Below are positions 1,534-7,090 of a stretch of DNA of 7,131 nucleotides, in pieces. The notes under the pieces were generated by a model, which did no database searches, was not told the DNA's origin, and was given only the letters and a program-made list of their open reading frames with translations. The DNA is from Candidatus Binatia bacterium (lineage in GTDB: Bacteria; Desulfobacterota_B; Binatia; UBA9968): the NCBI GenBank assembly GCA_025922795.1, contig JAICHC010000139.1:1-7131 (forward strand), read 5' to 3'. Both the position numbers and the translations under genes were made by a program. Position 1 is the stretch's first letter. Each line of letters starts with the position of its first letter.

Positions 1534-2250
1534 ATGTTTACCGACAAGATCGAATTAGCAGATTTCGACAAAATGGAGCCGGAGTACAAAGAACTTTTAG
1601 GTCATGTGCTGACGATTCAAGCCGACTGCGAGATCGGCGGGCCGCACTTGTACGTGGAAAAGATGTTGCCGGCGGCGCCGACCAAGCTCGATCAATTGAT
1701 CGTCGCGCGCACCGCCGCCGAGGAGATCGACCATTTTCGTAAAATCGCCCGTGTAGCCGGAGACATCGGGGTCGACGTTTCTTTCGTGCTGAGCCAGCCG
1801 AACGAGAAGCGCTTTGTCGACGCCTTTCGCGGTGTGATCGACACGTGGGAGGACAATGCGGTGTTCGGCTTTTTGATTGACCGGGTTGGGCGCTATCAGC
1901 TGGAGGAATTTTTTGATTGCAGCTACCTGCCGCTCCAACGGATTCTCCCCGATATCGTAATGGAGGAACTGGGTCACATCGAGTACGGCTTTAATAAGAC
2001 CGTGGAGCTAATTCAGTCGGGCGACGAGGGCAAGGCCAAGGCGCAAAAGGCGGTGGATTTCTGGTACGTACGCGCTCTGGATATGTTCGGCAGAGCTGGG
2101 TCGAAGCGTTCCGAGCGCTATCGTTACTGGGGCCTCAAACGACGCACCAATGAACAGGCGCGGCAAGATTATCAGACCGAAGTCAACCCGATCCTGAAGA
2201 AGATCGGACTCACGGTTCCGGATCCGCTGAAAGGGCGGCGCTATCTATAA
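1534..2250 (+). CDS. PaaA-like diiron oxygenase (PaaA/PaaC family, ferritin-like)
   Basis: A 238-residue all-helical protein of the phenylacetyl-CoA epoxidase PaaA/PaaC family (PF05138). Expected diiron ligands are visible in two halves: E33 (ADCEIGG), then E64 and H67 in EEIDH; later D116 or E124, then E145 and H148 in EELGH. From memory, the stretch DRVGRYQ to EELGH (116-148) lines up without gaps on E. coli PaaA. The FWYVRALDMFG (176-186) and IGLTVPDP (224-231) segments also have clear PaaA counterparts. PaaA proper has about 309 residues, so this protein lacks roughly the last 70. No PaaB, PaaC or PaaE reductase gene is nearby, so phenylacetyl-CoA is not a safe substrate call. A BoxB-like or other stand-alone oxygenase role is possible. 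It is first gene of a short operon behind a sigma-54 promoter. Family is confident; substrate is unknown. Confidence 0.85.
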   Translation: MFTDKIELADFDKMEPEYKELLGHVLTIQADCEIGGPHLYVEKMLPAAPTKLDQLIVARTAAEEIDHFRKIARVAGDIGVDVSFVLSQPNEKRFVDAFRGVIDTWEDNAVFGFLIDRVGRYQLEEFFDCSYLPLQRILPDIVMEELGHIEYGFNKTVELIQSGDEGKAKAQKAVDFWYVRALDMFGRAGSKRSERYRYWGLKRRTNEQARQDYQTEVNPILKKIGLTVPDPLKGRRYL

Positions 2251-2510: not shown

Positions 2511-3644
2511 TCAAGCCGCACTGAAGCCCAATTTTCTTTCGATGTAATTCTCATAAATCCGGTAAAGCATTTCCATGGACGCGATATCGACCCACTCGTC
2601 GAGAGCGTGCAGGCTGCCGACGTAAGGCCGCGTCATAATGACGGGTATGCCATGGCGCGCGAGGTAGCGAGCGTCGCTGCCGCCGTGCTCGCGTATCAAC
2701 CGTACCGGCGCGCCGGTGATCTCCTCGGTCACTTTGAGATAAAGCGGGTCCGGCGCCAGGTTGGTGGGCTCGGCGGCGACCAGGACTTCCAATTCCATTT
2801 GCTCGTCCAATAATCGTTCGATGCCTGCTTGCATTTTCGCAACCGTGTGCGGCGCCGGGAAGCGGATGTCGCAGGTCACTTCGGCGCGATCAGGGACGCG
2901 GTTGGGTACGCGGTTTTGCGTTTCCACTACTGTGAATGTGCAGGTTGGATGCCAATGGTTGTCGCCCTTTTTGAGTCCATCGAAGTGAGCGCGAATCCTA
3001 CCAAGGGCACTAATGATCCGCTCGCAAGCGTTGTCGGCCAGCCATGGCCGGCTGCCGTGGCCCGCCGTACCGCGGGCCACGATTTTCACATGCAGCGTGC
3101 CTTTTTCTTCAACTGCGATGTCGTTGAGCGAACCGGAATCGGGAATGATGGCCGTGCCGCAGCGCATCCCGGCCTGCTCGAAGAGAAAGCGCGTGCCGTG
3201 AGTGCCGCCCCGTTCTTCGTCCGAGGTGACCGCCAAACCCAAGGAGGCACCGGGATGCCTTTCATGAATCGTGCGAAAAACTTCCAGCAGGATCGCCAAC
3301 TCGCCCTTCATGTCACCCGCGCCAGGGCCGTAAATTTTTCCATCTTTCAGAGCCGAACTGTATTCCGTGCCGGGCGGCAAAGAGACCACATCAAGGTGAG
3401 CCAGCAATAGGATCGCAGGCGCTGCTGCGCGGGTCGGCAGAAAGACGGTGCACGGAGCGTTGCCCTCGCGATAACGGTGCACGGTCACAGCGTCTGAAAC
3501 CTCCGCATGGTGAATGACGAATTCCATCCCGCGGTCAATCTCTTCAGGGCGATCCGCCGTGCTCGGAATGAGAATCAAATCCCGGGTGATCTCAACCAGG
3601 CGCTTGCGCAGCGTTTCCGAAGCTTGAGAGCCCGTGTCAGTCAC
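2511..3644 (-). CDS. M20-family dinuclear zinc peptidase/deacylase
   Basis: A 377-residue enzyme of the M20 family (ArgE/DapE/ACY1/CPG2). The metal centre is complete: H83 and D85 (AHLDVV), bridging D111 (GAGDMKG), catalytic E143 and ligand E144 (SDEERGG), D169 (IPDSGS), and H346 near the C terminus (GSLHALDE). The dimerisation or lid domain falls at about 180-295 and contains GHGSRP with H196. There is no signal peptide, so it is cytoplasmic. The family hydrolyses N-acyl amino acids, dipeptides or succinyl-diaminopimelate; the sequence does not tell which. It is last in the four-gene operon. Its GTG start overlaps the stop of the upstream ATP-grasp gene (GTGACTGA, 8 nt), which suggests translational coupling. 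Context suggests that it hydrolyses an amide bond related to the product of the ligases upstream. Confidence 0.87.
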   Translation of the reverse strand: MTDTGSQASETLRKRLVEITRDLILIPSTADRPEEIDRGMEFVIHHAEVSDAVTVHRYREGNAPCTVFLPTRAAAPAILLLAHLDVVSLPPGTEYSSALKDGKIYGPGAGDMKGELAILLEVFRTIHERHPGASLGLAVTSDEERGGTHGTRFLFEQAGMRCGTAIIPDSGSLNDIAVEEKGTLHVKIVARGTAGHGSRPWLADNACERIISALGRIRAHFDGLKKGDNHWHPTCTFTVVETQNRVPNRVPDRAEVTCDIRFPAPHTVAKMQAGIERLLDEQMELEVLVAAEPTNLAPDPLYLKVTEEITGAPVRLIREHGGSDARYLARHGIPVIMTRPYVGSLHALDEWVDIASMEMLYRIYENYIERKLGFSAA

Positions 3645-5019
3645 GATCGTAACCCCATTCGACCGGTAACTCGGACCACGCCCGATTGAGTAGCACCGTA
3701 CATTCGTCGATCTGATCAGCGATGCAGACGAACTGGCCTTTCAACACTCGGCCCTCGAGGTCGGTATTGAAATTGAAAGGAATGATGCCGGCAGCCGAGC
3801 CGGTTCGATACAATACCCCGGCGCGTTCGATCAGCGCGATGAGATCTACTCCGGCCAAGGGTTTGCGAAATGCGATGTTGCGCATGAGCCAATCACCTTC
3901 GGGTTTGAGATGCCGGGCGAGAAAGGCCGGATAGGTGGCGCCGGTGACACGCGCGTTGATCTCGCAGAGGATCGTTTCCGAGCGTCCGCCGCGCTCGACA
4001 ATGAGAAAATCGACGCTGCAGGTGCCGCGAAAGCCCTGTCGGTGCAACCAGGTTCCGGCAATGCCGGCCTGGCGCCACAATTCGCGCTCGACCTCGGGAA
4101 ACTGCTGCGCCACCGGCGGGGGCGACATATTGCCCTGGTGGACGCTTTCTTCGCTGAGGATTTGTTCGGTCATGTCGAAGAGGAATACCGTGTCGGCGTT
4201 CAAAAACAGCTGGACGCTCGGGGACGCAAGCTTGCGCATGCCGAGAACGCCGTCTTCGATCCAGCCCTGCACCATGCAGGGGCCCTCGAAAAAAAGAAAT
4301 TCCGGAACCGCGGGCATTTCAAGCTCGCCGATGGCCATGACGATCATGCCGTAGCCCGAAGCGCCGATCTGGGCTTTGACGACGGCCTTGCGGTAGCCGA
4401 TCGCGCGGAGATTGTCCAAGCACGCGCCGACTTCCTCTTGATTCGACGCGAGCAGAGTATCGAAAACGGGCAACTGTTGTTCCACTTGATGGCGATAAAG
4501 AAGGTATTTGTTGTTGCCGTTCTTACTCCCGTCTAAAGTACTGATGGTTTGCTTACCCAGCAGTTCGGCGATCTTGACCAGCTTGGTGTCGGTGACAAAA
4601 CCATCCACCCACTCGGCGGGATGCTCGCGCAGCTTCTGAAAGAGCCGGGTTTGAGTCAACGCCTTCGCATCCTTGGCGGAGGCCAGCCGTTCGTAATCGG
4701 ATAGCTCGATGATTTGGTATTCCGGCAGCGGCAGACCGATCTCGTCGGCGAGATATTTCACGAGACTTGGCTCAGGTGAGACCTCGAGCAGCATCAGGTT
4801 GGGCCGTTCGTGAAACAGTAAATCGAGAATCGACATTACCCGCCCGCCGTAGGAATGAGAGCCGGTGATTTCATTCATCAATTGCCGGGTCTGATCGGTG
4901 TTGCCATAAAAGATCGAGTGGATGTTGGAGAAGAACAGCGCGCGGCGAGCCCACGAAGGTGGCGGCTGGCCGTGTCGAACTGTGACGGTGGGATTGGCGG
5001 ATGGCATCGTTGACTGCAT
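3637..5019 (-). CDS. PGM1-like ATP-grasp peptide ligase
   Basis: A 460-residue ATP-grasp ligase (ADP-forming carboxylate-amine ligase). Residues 25-165 look like a pre-ATP-grasp domain. ATP-binding elements follow: K171 (NNKYLLYR), K215 with the glycine-rich loop AQIGASGYGM (216-225), a VQGWIEDG hinge (250-257), D337 (SVDFLI), and the metal-binding CEINARVTGATYP (352-364) with E353, N355 and R357. The C-terminal part (about 400-450, with GIIPFNF and KGQFVCIADQIDE) resembles the C-terminal segment of PGM1, the pheganomycin peptide ligase, from memory. Cyanophycin-like or other amide ligases are alternatives. It begins four bases after the stop of the Ddl-like gene with only a weak ribosome-binding site, so coupled translation is likely. 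A second ATG at 5007 also lacks a good site. Ligase chemistry is well supported; both substrates are unknown. Confidence 0.8.
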   Translation of the reverse strand: MQSTMPSANPTVTVRHGQPPPSWARRALFFSNIHSIFYGNTDQTRQLMNEITGSHSYGGRVMSILDLLFHERPNLMLLEVSPEPSLVKYLADEIGLPLPEYQIIELSDYERLASAKDAKALTQTRLFQKLREHPAEWVDGFVTDTKLVKIAELLGKQTISTLDGSKNGNNKYLLYRHQVEQQLPVFDTLLASNQEEVGACLDNLRAIGYRKAVVKAQIGASGYGMIVMAIGELEMPAVPEFLFFEGPCMVQGWIEDGVLGMRKLASPSVQLFLNADTVFLFDMTEQILSEESVHQGNMSPPPVAQQFPEVERELWRQAGIAGTWLHRQGFRGTCSVDFLIVERGGRSETILCEINARVTGATYPAFLARHLKPEGDWLMRNIAFRKPLAGVDLIALIERAGVLYRTGSAAGIIPFNFNTDLEGRVLKGQFVCIADQIDECTVLLNRAWSELPVEWGYDRD

Positions 5020-5023
5020 CTTT

Positions 5024-6043
5024 CTATCTTGCCAGCGCCAGGCGCAGGATATGCTGGATCAAGCGCTCGTAAGATAAACCGGCCTTCATGGCCGATTGGG
5101 CAAACTCATCGTCGCGATCCAGATTGGGATTGGGATTCGCTTCGAGTATGACAACCTCGCCTTGCGGCGTAACGCGGAGGTCGATGCGGCCGTAGCCGTG
5201 GATGCGCAGCGCGCGGTAAACGGACTTGCAGATCTTGACAATCTGCTGGCCGGTGCCGTTGGGGAAGGGCTCGGCGAAAACATTTTGGATGCCCCAGCGT
5301 TTGCGATAAGCATCGTCCCATTTGGCCTTAAAGGTGGAAAACTTGGGCTGGCCCTCGGGGACTTCGGTGAAGATGACCTCGCGGAACGGAAAGACGCGCA
5401 GGCGGTCGTTACCGAGCAAGCTGACGTAAATTTCCCTACCCTCGATAAACTCTTCGGCCAACGCTGCCTGGTTCATGCGCTCGTGGATGAAACGAACCCG
5501 TTCCTCGAAGGCTTCGTCGTTTTCGACGAACGAGTCCAAGGAGATTCCGTAGGAGGCTTCTTCTTCGGCGGGCTTGATGAACAGGGGAAACTGGAGGCGC
5601 GGCGGTTTTTTGATTGCCGCGCCCGGTGAAAAAATCGCGAAGTTAGGCACGCGAATCTTGTGATACGCCAACAGTTCCTTGGCCATGCCTTTATTCTTGC
5701 AGAGCGTCAACCCGGTCGGACTCGAACCGGTGTAGGGCACGCTCATCATCTCGAGCAGGCCGGCAACGTTGCGGTCGTAGGCGGAGACCTCGTTGAAATG
5801 CTCGGTCAGGTTGAAGACGACGTCGGGCGGGTTGGCCTTGATCTCATCGATGATCATGCCGGGCTCGTCCCAGACGCCGATGGTGCGCACTTCGTGGCCG
5901 AGTTTTTTTAGCGCCTCGATCACATGCGCTTCCGCCGCCCAGTCGTCGGTTTTCAATTCCTTGGTGAAATCCTGATCTTCCGGCGGTGTTCCGGCGGTAT
6001 CGAAGAGGACGAGAACCTTGTGACGTCTTTTCGCTCGGGCCAT
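5024..6043 (-). CDS. D-Ala-D-Ala ligase-like ATP-grasp enzyme
   Basis: A 339-residue cytoplasmic ATP-grasp ligase related to D-alanine--D-alanine ligase. The N-terminal domain (about 8-110) ends in VFNLTEHF (76-83) and PYTGSSPTGLTLCKNKGMAK, a Ddl-like linker with K116 and K118. The ATP-grasp fold follows: K157 (FIKPAEEEASYGI), the E197-E198 hinge (AEEFIEGREIYV), R286 and D288 (GRIDLR), and metal ligands E301 and N303 in EANPNPNLDRDDE. Housekeeping Ddl usually carries an E-x-N-T-x-P-G motif there, so a substrate other than D-Ala-D-Ala is likely. The start at 6043 is three bases after the upstream gene's stop, with no strong ribosome-binding site. No mur genes are near, which also argues against a wall-synthesis role. 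Confidence 0.83.
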   Translation of the reverse strand: MARAKRRHKVLVLFDTAGTPPEDQDFTKELKTDDWAAEAHVIEALKKLGHEVRTIGVWDEPGMIIDEIKANPPDVVFNLTEHFNEVSAYDRNVAGLLEMMSVPYTGSSPTGLTLCKNKGMAKELLAYHKIRVPNFAIFSPGAAIKKPPRLQFPLFIKPAEEEASYGISLDSFVENDEAFEERVRFIHERMNQAALAEEFIEGREIYVSLLGNDRLRVFPFREVIFTEVPEGQPKFSTFKAKWDDAYRKRWGIQNVFAEPFPNGTGQQIVKICKSVYRALRIHGYGRIDLRVTPQGEVVILEANPNPNLDRDDEFAQSAMKAGLSYERLIQHILRLALAR

Positions 6044-6046
6044 AAT

Positions 6047-7090
6047 TCAGGACTTCTTGAACTTGCCGGTCAGCCGGTAATGGGACGCGAGCGTCGCCAG
6101 GAACGCCGTGACCTCGACGCCCGCAGAAGGATTGCGCAACCGCAAATCCAGCTCGGCGCAACGATCCGTCAAGGCGCGCAGCAAACGGTTGAGGGTGAAC
6201 TTCGGTTCGCCGGTCCAGGTCGAGACGGCCTGCAGAATCATTTTGCTCGAACGGCGCAAAAACACCGCGGCGCGCTCGTTCTCCGGCGCCGCAGCCGCGT
6301 CGACGAAGAGCCTGCGCAGATCGGCGTCGAAAAATTCCGGAAAGTCTTGGGCGTAAGTTTTGCGCCGGCGCTTGTAGTATAGAGCCAGGCGCGAGCGCAA
6401 ACGCGAAGCCTCGCTCATCTTGGTTTTGACGAACACCAGGGGCGGTTTGCCGGCGAGCTTGTTCATTAGCTCATCGACGTATTCGAGCTTGGTCAGAGCT
6501 TTCCAGCCGCGATACTGGCGGCGCCAGTCGAGATCGGGCGTGAGCCAGATCGCGACGGTTTCGGCGAAATCTTCTTCCGGGTGACTCTGCGCGTAATAAC
6601 CGTCCAGGTGCCGCACGAAGCCGCGGCTGTACGGCCGGGCGCGAAAGCTCTCGGAGTATTCCAGCGAGACGGGGCCGAACAGTTTCTGCCAGGCTTTGTC
6701 CTTTTCCAGCAGATAGGCGTGATTCAGCACGTGGCCCATTTCGTGACGCAGGAGACGCATGCACCAGGCCTCGGTGCCGCCTTCGACTTCCATCATCATT
6801 TTCTCTTCGAGCTTTTTCAAGCGCGGATGGGCGAGATAAAAGGGGATAGCGATGGTGGCACAGCCCTCGGGGCAATACCACTCTTCGCCGAGATAGCAGA
6901 TCGGTTTGACTAGAACATTTTTTGCGTCCAGCTCCGCATTGAATTTGGCAATTCGTGATTCGAGTTCGGTGCCGGGAATTCTGAGCTTCAAGTCACAGAT
7001 ACGCATCTGCAGTAGCTCGTCATCGGTCATAGCGCCGAGGTCCGGCTCGCTGTCCTGAGGTCCCGGAAGCTTTTCCGTCGATTCGTCCAT
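6047..7090 (-). CDS. Intracellular HExxH zinc metallopeptidase
   Basis: A 347-residue protein with the zinc site H116-E117-x-x-H120 (LLRHEMGHVLNHAY). The probable third ligand is E173 in HPEEDFAETVAIWL, an E-x-x-A-E arrangement seen in gluzincin-type peptidases. The layout resembles the putative zinc-binding metallopeptidases of Pfam Peptidase_Mx, where a HPxED-x-AE segment follows HExxH by 50-60 residues; this match is from memory. YCPEGC (72-77) holds two cysteines. The C-terminal 130 residues are helical and basic (YYKRRRK at 238-244) and match nothing I know. There is no signal peptide. The ATG at 7090 has no ribosome-binding site, and the frame stays open to the window edge, so translation could begin further upstream. 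An alternative ATG at 7030 is no better. It is first of the four-gene operon as seen here. Confidence 0.75.
   Translation of the reverse strand: MDESTEKLPGPQDSEPDLGAMTDDELLQMRICDLKLRIPGTELESRIAKFNAELDAKNVLVKPICYLGEEWYCPEGCATIAIPFYLAHPRLKKLEEKMMMEVEGGTEAWCMRLLRHEMGHVLNHAYLLEKDKAWQKLFGPVSLEYSESFRARPYSRGFVRHLDGYYAQSHPEEDFAETVAIWLTPDLDWRRQYRGWKALTKLEYVDELMNKLAGKPPLVFVKTKMSEASRLRSRLALYYKRRRKTYAQDFPEFFDADLRRLFVDAAAAPENERAAVFLRRSSKMILQAVSTWTGEPKFTLNRLLRALTDRCAELDLRLRNPSAGVEVTAFLATLASHYRLTGKFKKS

What the first reader, a model, noticed from the sequence alone, without database searches (positions are those of the whole stretch)
2511..7090. Compact operon with two different ATP-grasp ligases and two different metallopeptidases
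Four genes read leftward with junctions of 3 nt, 4 nt and an 8-nt overlap: HExxH peptidase, Ddl-like ligase, PGM1-like ligase, M20 peptidase. The active-site residues I can identify appear intact in all four. Two amide-forming and two amide-breaking enzymes in one operon suggest a dedicated pathway. It may make and process a small peptide or amide metabolite, or attach and remove residues on a protein. NAGGN osmolyte clusters use a similar ligase-plus-peptidase logic with other families. I do not recognise this combination as a named system.
Basis: partly seen in the sequence, partly recalled or inferred. Interest (0 to 1): 0.78.

Follow-up and report, generated by a model that had tools for sequence, protein, structure and literature searches.

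The report
Two joined ligase–peptidase gene pairs
A bacterium, probably of the Binatia group, carries in one operon two gene pairs that are separate in other genomes, each pairing an enzyme that builds amide bonds with one that breaks them; I found no described product for either, and one pair shows signs of a link to salt-adapted bacteria.

Summary
In detail: four tightly packed minus-strand genes (HExxH peptidase, Ddl-like ligase, PGM1-like ligase, M20 hydrolase). The reading as one dedicated four-enzyme pathway is only partly supported.

The operon is two cassettes that elsewhere stand alone. A (HExxH then Ddl-like) is adjacent in 54 of 56 loci examined; B (PGM1-like then M20) in 79 of 80; all three misses are contig ends. 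None of 70 B loci with enough upstream sequence has A beside it, and none of 40 A loci has B (33 have 1.5 kb or more after Ddl). A is about as common in B-carrying genomes (14 of 50, mixed phyla) as in random planctomycetes (49 of 199). Six further contigs carry Ddl and PGM1 together, inferred from equal contig lengths, so the join looks inherited but confined to the window's relatives.

The Ddl-like enzyme misses the D-Ala–D-Ala ligase cut-offs shown and lacks that enzyme's acceptor motif. B occurs in 12 of 17 genomes of Scalindua's family and 0 of 45 others of its order; planctomycete and verrucomicrobial carriers have more acidic proteins, Binatia carriers do not. I propose that B makes and recycles a dipeptide-like osmolyte, and that A adds and removes an amide on a peptide or protein.

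The parts
6047..7090 (-). Cassette A, gene 1: HExxH zinc peptidase (PF15887 Peptidase_Mx), HEMGH at residues 116-120, HPEEDFAE at 170-177
5024..6043 (-). Cassette A, gene 2: Ddl-like ATP-grasp amide ligase, not a D-Ala-D-Ala ligase by motif or by the cut-offs shown
   Evidence: PF07478 95.6 bits; best NCBIfam Ddl model 131.7 bits vs cut-off 243, 25 of 42 matches shown, all below cut-off; canonical NTLPGMTQASL reads NPNPNLDRDDE; downstream of HExxH on the same strand in 54 of 56 loci, the 2 misses at contig ends
3637..5019 (-). Cassette B, gene 1: PGM1-like ATP-grasp ligase
2511..3644 (-). Cassette B, gene 2: M20 metallo-hydrolase (DapE/ArgE-like), GTG start, 8-nt overlap with the PGM1-like gene
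   Evidence: PF01546 88.6 bits, PF07687 51.4; nearest solved chain 2RB7, then DapE; putative metal-ligand positions invariant in 75 of 75; match directly downstream of PGM1 in 79 of 80 loci

Best explanation
SHOWN: the operon joins two cassettes that elsewhere are separate and each nearly invariant, (A) HExxH zinc peptidase then Ddl-like ATP-grasp ligase and (B) PGM1-like ATP-grasp ligase then M20 hydrolase. By family, each is a maker/breaker pair for amide bonds. INFERRED for B: the PGM1-like ligase couples two small amino/carboxylic acids, using ATP, into a dipeptide-like compatible solute, and the M20 enzyme hydrolyses it when it is no longer needed, so that the pool follows external osmolarity or dryness. 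INFERRED for A: the Ddl-like ligase adds an amino acid or amine to a peptide or protein and the zinc peptidase removes it (or trims the substrate first), as RimK and RimB do for ribosomal protein RpsF. INFERRED for the window: in the window's lineage both cassettes came to lie in one closely spaced, probably co-translated operon, which implies co-regulation, not one pathway. Rough odds: two-cassette anatomy 0.9; B makes and recycles a small amide or dipeptide 0.6; that it is an osmolyte 0.35; A is a reversible tag on a peptide or protein 0.35.
Against: In that contrast (D+E)/(K+R) does not differ (p = 0.64), though the share of proteins with pI below 6 does (p = 0.030) and so does G+C (p = 0.028); carriers and non-carriers within the family do not differ (p = 0.49, only 2 non-carriers usable); the planctomycete pI-share contrast is not significant (p = 0.24); verrucomicrobial contig-1 pieces alone give p = 0.075. 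PMC5486813 argues that other Scalindua use a salt-in strategy rather than solutes. Binatia-class B loci show no acid shift (0.89 vs 0.95, p = 1, 3 against 9 loci), so salt cannot be the whole story, least of all for the window's relatives. No substrate is identified for any of the four enzymes. For A nothing shows that the substrate is a protein.
Confidence: 0.45

Rival explanations
1. One dedicated four-enzyme pathway: the two ligases act in sequence on one metabolite or protein and the two peptidases process it.
For: Very tight spacing across all three junctions in the window; Ddl and PGM1 on one contig in six further cases by contig-length match, at PGM1 identities of 60-71% (one of the six, P0098, a partial protein at 69%), so the join seems to have lasted some time.
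Against: Elsewhere A and B were not neighbours (no match in 80 B loci, or in 40 A loci) and do not co-occur beyond background (14 of 50 vs 49 of 199); 15 of 18 HExxH-carrying genomes of the order of G002 lack PGM1.
Confidence: 0.15
2. Protecting-group or carrier strategy: B's ligase blocks an amino group (as LysX does on LysW, or BesA with gamma-glutamate; recalled) and the M20 enzyme releases the finished product (as LysK does; recalled). B would belong to amino-acid or cofactor synthesis, not to an osmolyte route.
Against: [LysW]-lysine hydrolase scores 58.2 against a cut-off of 363. No carrier, kinase, reductase or transaminase gene was seen to recur beside B: apart from PGM1 and M20 the largest ORF cluster covers 12 of the 80 loci and, at the two loci checked, is an antisense frame of these two genes; the next covers 9. 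Patchy distribution (3 of 148 in the class of G002, 3 of 115 in the phylum of G005) does not suit core amino-acid synthesis.
Confidence: 0.2
3. Specialised metabolite or modified-peptide pathway of the pheganomycin kind, with a ribosomal precursor peptide.
For: PGM1 itself joins a nonproteinogenic amino acid to a small core peptide (PMC8939145, passages).
Against: No recurring tailoring gene seen beside B or A; precursor genes under 60-70 aa were not called, so a short one could be missed.
Confidence: 0.07
4. Cell-wall chemistry: the Ddl-like ligase makes an alternative dipeptide for peptidoglycan and the zinc peptidase trims stem peptides.
For: Sequence match to D-Ala-D-Ala ligases.
Against: The acceptor motif is replaced; scores lie far below the Ddl cut-offs shown; a second Ddl-type match exists in G003, so the housekeeping role is probably filled there.
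Confidence: 0.08

Closest known systems
RimK/RimB (ATP-grasp glutamate ligase plus protease, Pseudomonas)
   Same: One operon holds an ATP-grasp ligase that adds glutamates to the C-terminus of RpsF and a protease that removes them (PMC12239564, passages).
   Different: The PGM1-like ligase is not RimK (TIGR00768 19 bits vs cut-off 143.4); the peptidases here are metallo-enzymes, not aspartic; substrate unknown.
PGM1 (pheganomycin) and BesA ligases
   Different: 15-16% identity; paired with an M20 hydrolase in 79 of 80 loci; no recurring antibiotic-type genes seen.
NAGGN osmolyte cluster (composition recalled)
   Same: Amide-forming enzyme plus peptidase, osmolyte role.
   Different: None of its marker models is among the NCBIfam hits shown for the four proteins, lists for two of them cut at 25.
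D-Ala-D-Ala ligase (Ddl)
   Same: Dala_Dala_lig_C domain.
   Different: Acceptor motif replaced, family cut-offs missed.
DapE/ArgE-type M20 deacylases and M20 entry 2RB7
   Same: M20 plus dimerisation domain, metal-ligand positions kept.
   Different: Below the cut-off of each DapE/ArgE model shown, 25 of 47 matches shown (best 166.3 vs 381).

Membership tests
D-Ala-D-Ala ligase | Passes a curated Ddl cut-off | tested here: not met
   Best NF002378 131.7 bits vs 243; TIGR01205 115.8 vs 245.65; 25 of 42 matches shown
D-Ala-D-Ala ligase | N-x-x-P-G-x-T...S-L acceptor motif (residue roles recalled) | tested here: not met
   NTLPGMTQASL of 3R23 aligns with the family's NPNPNLDRDDE
PGM1-type peptide ligase | PGM1 fold over most of the chain | tested here: met
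   [not shown]
PGM1-type peptide ligase | PF18604 PreAtp-grasp above its cut-off | tested here: not met
   21.4 vs 27.5 bits; three of the 120 listed homologues carry the precomputed PF18604 label (P0026, P0104, P0118)
PGM1-type peptide ligase | Ligates a peptide acceptor | not testable with these tools
   Needs an assay
M20 peptidase family | Pfam cut-offs and metal ligands | tested here: met
   PF01546 88.6 vs 24.6, PF07687 51.4 vs 21; H83 D85 D111 E143 E144 D169 H346 in 75 of 75 (roles recalled)
PF15887 Peptidase_Mx | Pfam cut-off and HExxH | tested here: met
   33.9 vs 27; H116 E117 H120 invariant in 20
RimK | TIGR00768 cut-off (PGM1-like ligase) | tested here: not met
   19 vs 143.4
LysW-type carrier system | [LysW]-lysine hydrolase cut-off | tested here: not met
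   58.2 vs 363
LysW-type carrier system | Small acidic carrier-protein gene nearby | tested here: inconclusive
   No recurring neighbour found, but only ORFs of 70 aa or more were called
NAGGN cluster | Its marker models (recalled) | tested here: inconclusive
   None among the NCBIfam hits shown; tables for the Ddl-like and M20 proteins were cut at the best 25

The most novel reading that the evidence does not exclude
Cassette B is the complete maker/breaker unit for an undescribed dipeptide-type compatible solute used by marine anammox bacteria and other salt-adapted planctomycetes and verrucomicrobia, which would supply a candidate for the unidentified solutes of Scalindua; cassette A is a widespread bacterial add/remove cycle on a protein or peptide end; and some Binatia-like bacteria have placed both in one operon as a joint water-stress response.
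Probability: 0.22. Interest if true: 0.85.

Novelty: new variant of a known kind. Interest (0 to 1): 0.58.

Why it matters
Two ligase-hydrolase pairs conserved across phyla, with no function that I could find in the papers searched, are cheap to test: each is two enzymes with no other conserved partner seen. If B makes an osmolyte, it would offer an answer to a stated open question, which compatible solute Scalindua uses (PMC5486813, passages), and would link a gene pair to marine nitrogen loss. If A is an add/remove cycle, it would be a metallo-peptidase counterpart of RimK/RimB. For this scan it also shows that a tight four-gene operon can be two modules rather than one pathway.

Tried and rejected

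Weak points of my counts. The comparison planctomycetes are the first 20 listed without a HExxH match (absence of B assumed from its rarity), the comparison verrucomicrobia the first 20 listed without a PGM1 match. Genomes used after dropping those with too little sequence: 12 of 13, 18 of 20, 37 of 42, 16 of 20, 10 of 11, 13 of 15 and 2 of 5. One search made 12 tests and five, uncorrected. One search kept the best 80 of 95 confirmed loci. Of these 80 genomes, 50 were searched for HExxH and three more (L001-L003); 27 were not. The 56 cassette-A loci are 32, 22 of the 49 planctomycete genomes beyond G006, and two found through Ddl (L153, L154). Gene distances are extrapolated from match starts; L018, whose M20 is broken, was wrongly counted there as overlapping and is left out of my figures (36 of 78 overlap, 26 at 0-50 nt, 12 at 51-150, 4 beyond). 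In G002 the Ddl gene runs off its contig end, so the separation of A and B there rests on the absence of a Ddl match in the 649 bases before PGM1.
Full report
The window and the observation. A binding-protein gene (284-1300, minus), a PaaA/PaaC-domain gene (1534-2250, plus) and a 63-aa ORF lie beyond the operon. No whole genome is held for the window; several of the named relatives in the protein searches are Candidatus Binatia MAGs, so the source is most likely a Binatia-like bacterium.

Two cassettes. A scan of the 84,980-species genome collection with the PGM1 alignment kept the best 80 of 95 confirmed loci. An M20 match follows PGM1 on the same strand in 79 of 80; in the exception the contig ends at PGM1, and in one of the 79 (L018) the M20 gene is broken. 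Leaving L018 out, the genes overlap in 36 of 78 and lie 0-50 nt apart in 26 (from, which had counted L018 as overlapping). None of the 80 has a HExxH or Ddl match; 70 have at least 1.1 kb upstream. HExxH homologues searched in whole genomes have Ddl downstream on the same strand in 52 of 54 distinct loci inspected, the two misses at contig ends; two more loci found through Ddl also have HExxH, making 54 of 56. In 40 loci taken with longer flanks, the largest neighbour cluster is shared by 5 and none has a PGM1 or M20 match; 33 of the 40 have at least 1.5 kb after Ddl. In three Binatia-class loci an alginate-lyase family protein follows, in one an MFS transporter.

Do the cassettes depend on each other? 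In the order of G002 (titled Candidatus Binatia), 18 of 35 genomes have HExxH and 3 of 35 have PGM1 (3 of 148 in the class). The three PGM1 genomes have both, on different contigs; in G003 these are 152,993 and 217,790 bases long. Of 50 further PGM1 genomes of several phyla, 14 have HExxH, against 49 of 199 genomes drawn from the phylum of G006. That is no sign of dependence.

The join in the window's relatives. No held genome that I searched was seen to contain the four-gene order. In the protein listings, six contigs match in exact length and source between the PGM1 and Ddl lists (12686, 8024, 5685, 13016, 9283, 8136). Shifted controls give, for lengths of 3000 or more, a mean of 0.12 and a maximum of 2; for all lengths a mean of 0.44 and a maximum of 6. 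Two of the six also appear in the HExxH list (13016, 8136, compared by eye). This is an inference from lengths, not a reading of the contigs. Long contigs with close PGM1 relatives (751940 and 1646779 bases) do not appear in the Ddl list, which counts against a general join in the clade, though clustering at 90% and the cut at 120 rows may hide them. In one Binatia MAG (VJQ55) PGM1 and Ddl are on different short contigs (P0021, P0269).

A lead on function of B. In the order of Scalindua arabica's genome, 12 of 17 genomes of its family carry PGM1 and 0 of 45 others do (the names Scalinduaceae and Brocadiales are recalled). Of the 12, ten are titled Scalindua, one Brocadiaceae S225, one is unnamed (titles). 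The Scalindua rubra paper states that betaine and ectoine synthesis are absent in Scalindua and that the nature of its compatible solutes needs experiment, but also argues that other Scalindua use a salt-in strategy (PMC5486813, passages). As a name-free proxy for salt adaptation I compared (D+E)/(K+R) in B carriers and comparison genomes: planctomycetes 1.09 vs 0.95 (p = 0.003), verrucomicrobia 1.12 vs 0.97 (p = 0.0015). For the anammox carriers the ratio does not differ (p = 0.64), while the share of proteins with pI below 6 does (p = 0.030), with a G+C difference too (p = 0.028). With contig-1 pieces only: planctomycetes p = 0.023, verrucomicrobia p = 0.075; A carriers show no shift (p = 0.81) and the three usable Binatia-class B loci show none. 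Many record titles suggest sea, soda-lake or saline-sludge samples to me, but that reading is recalled and was not counted. In S. rubra, from a brine interface, the M20 gene is broken while the ligase frame is open, which would fit a solute that need not be degraded; it is one case.

Mechanism. For B I propose that the ligase makes, and M20 breaks, a dipeptide-like compatible solute; for A an add/remove pair on a peptide or protein, modelled on RimK/RimB, where an ATP-grasp ligase and a protease of one operon act in opposite directions on RpsF (PMC12239564, passages). Both are inferences. The acidic residues where Ddl enzymes have their acceptor motif argue against a free D-amino acid as second substrate. 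For the window, the joint operon is best read as shared regulation.

Standing. Ligase-hydrolase antagonism is a known kind of system; these two pairs were not described in any listing or passage I saw in ten searches. The survey most likely to have mentioned them (Iyer et al. 2009) could not be read, so priority is not claimed.

Noticed in passing
L155, L156, L160 (genomes of the phylum of G003): Two Ddl-like ligases in tandem follow, in L155, deoxyhypusine-synthase, arginase and pyruvoyl arginine decarboxylase family proteins; L156 and L160 have proteins of matching size and start (L160 cut by its contig end). Possibly a polyamine-conjugating pathway.
   Followed up: partly
L157 and L162: Tandem Ddl-like ligases followed by a lysine 2,3-aminomutase family protein (with a GNAT acetyltransferase in L157), hinting at beta-lysine-containing amides.
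   Followed up: partly
L018:1793-2490 (Scalindua rubra): The M20 gene of cassette B is broken: only its last third is recognisable, in three frames, with an inverted-repeat-like stretch before it, while the PGM1-like frame is open.
   Followed up: partly
L011, L044, L060 (PGM1-like gene): In-frame stop inside the PGM1 match; decay, sequencing error or recoding not distinguished.
   Followed up: no
L135:3846-5060, L147:9257-10495, L143:2281-3534: An alginate-lyase family protein (PF05426) follows HExxH-Ddl in three Binatia-class loci; similar proteins occur in two more of the 40 loci.
   Followed up: no
[not shown]
   Followed up: partly
window 1534-2250: A PaaA/PaaC-domain protein (80.7 bits, above the Pfam cut-off) that scores far below the PaaA equivalog (88.6 vs 280); no other paa gene was recognised among the window proteins scanned.
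   Followed up: no
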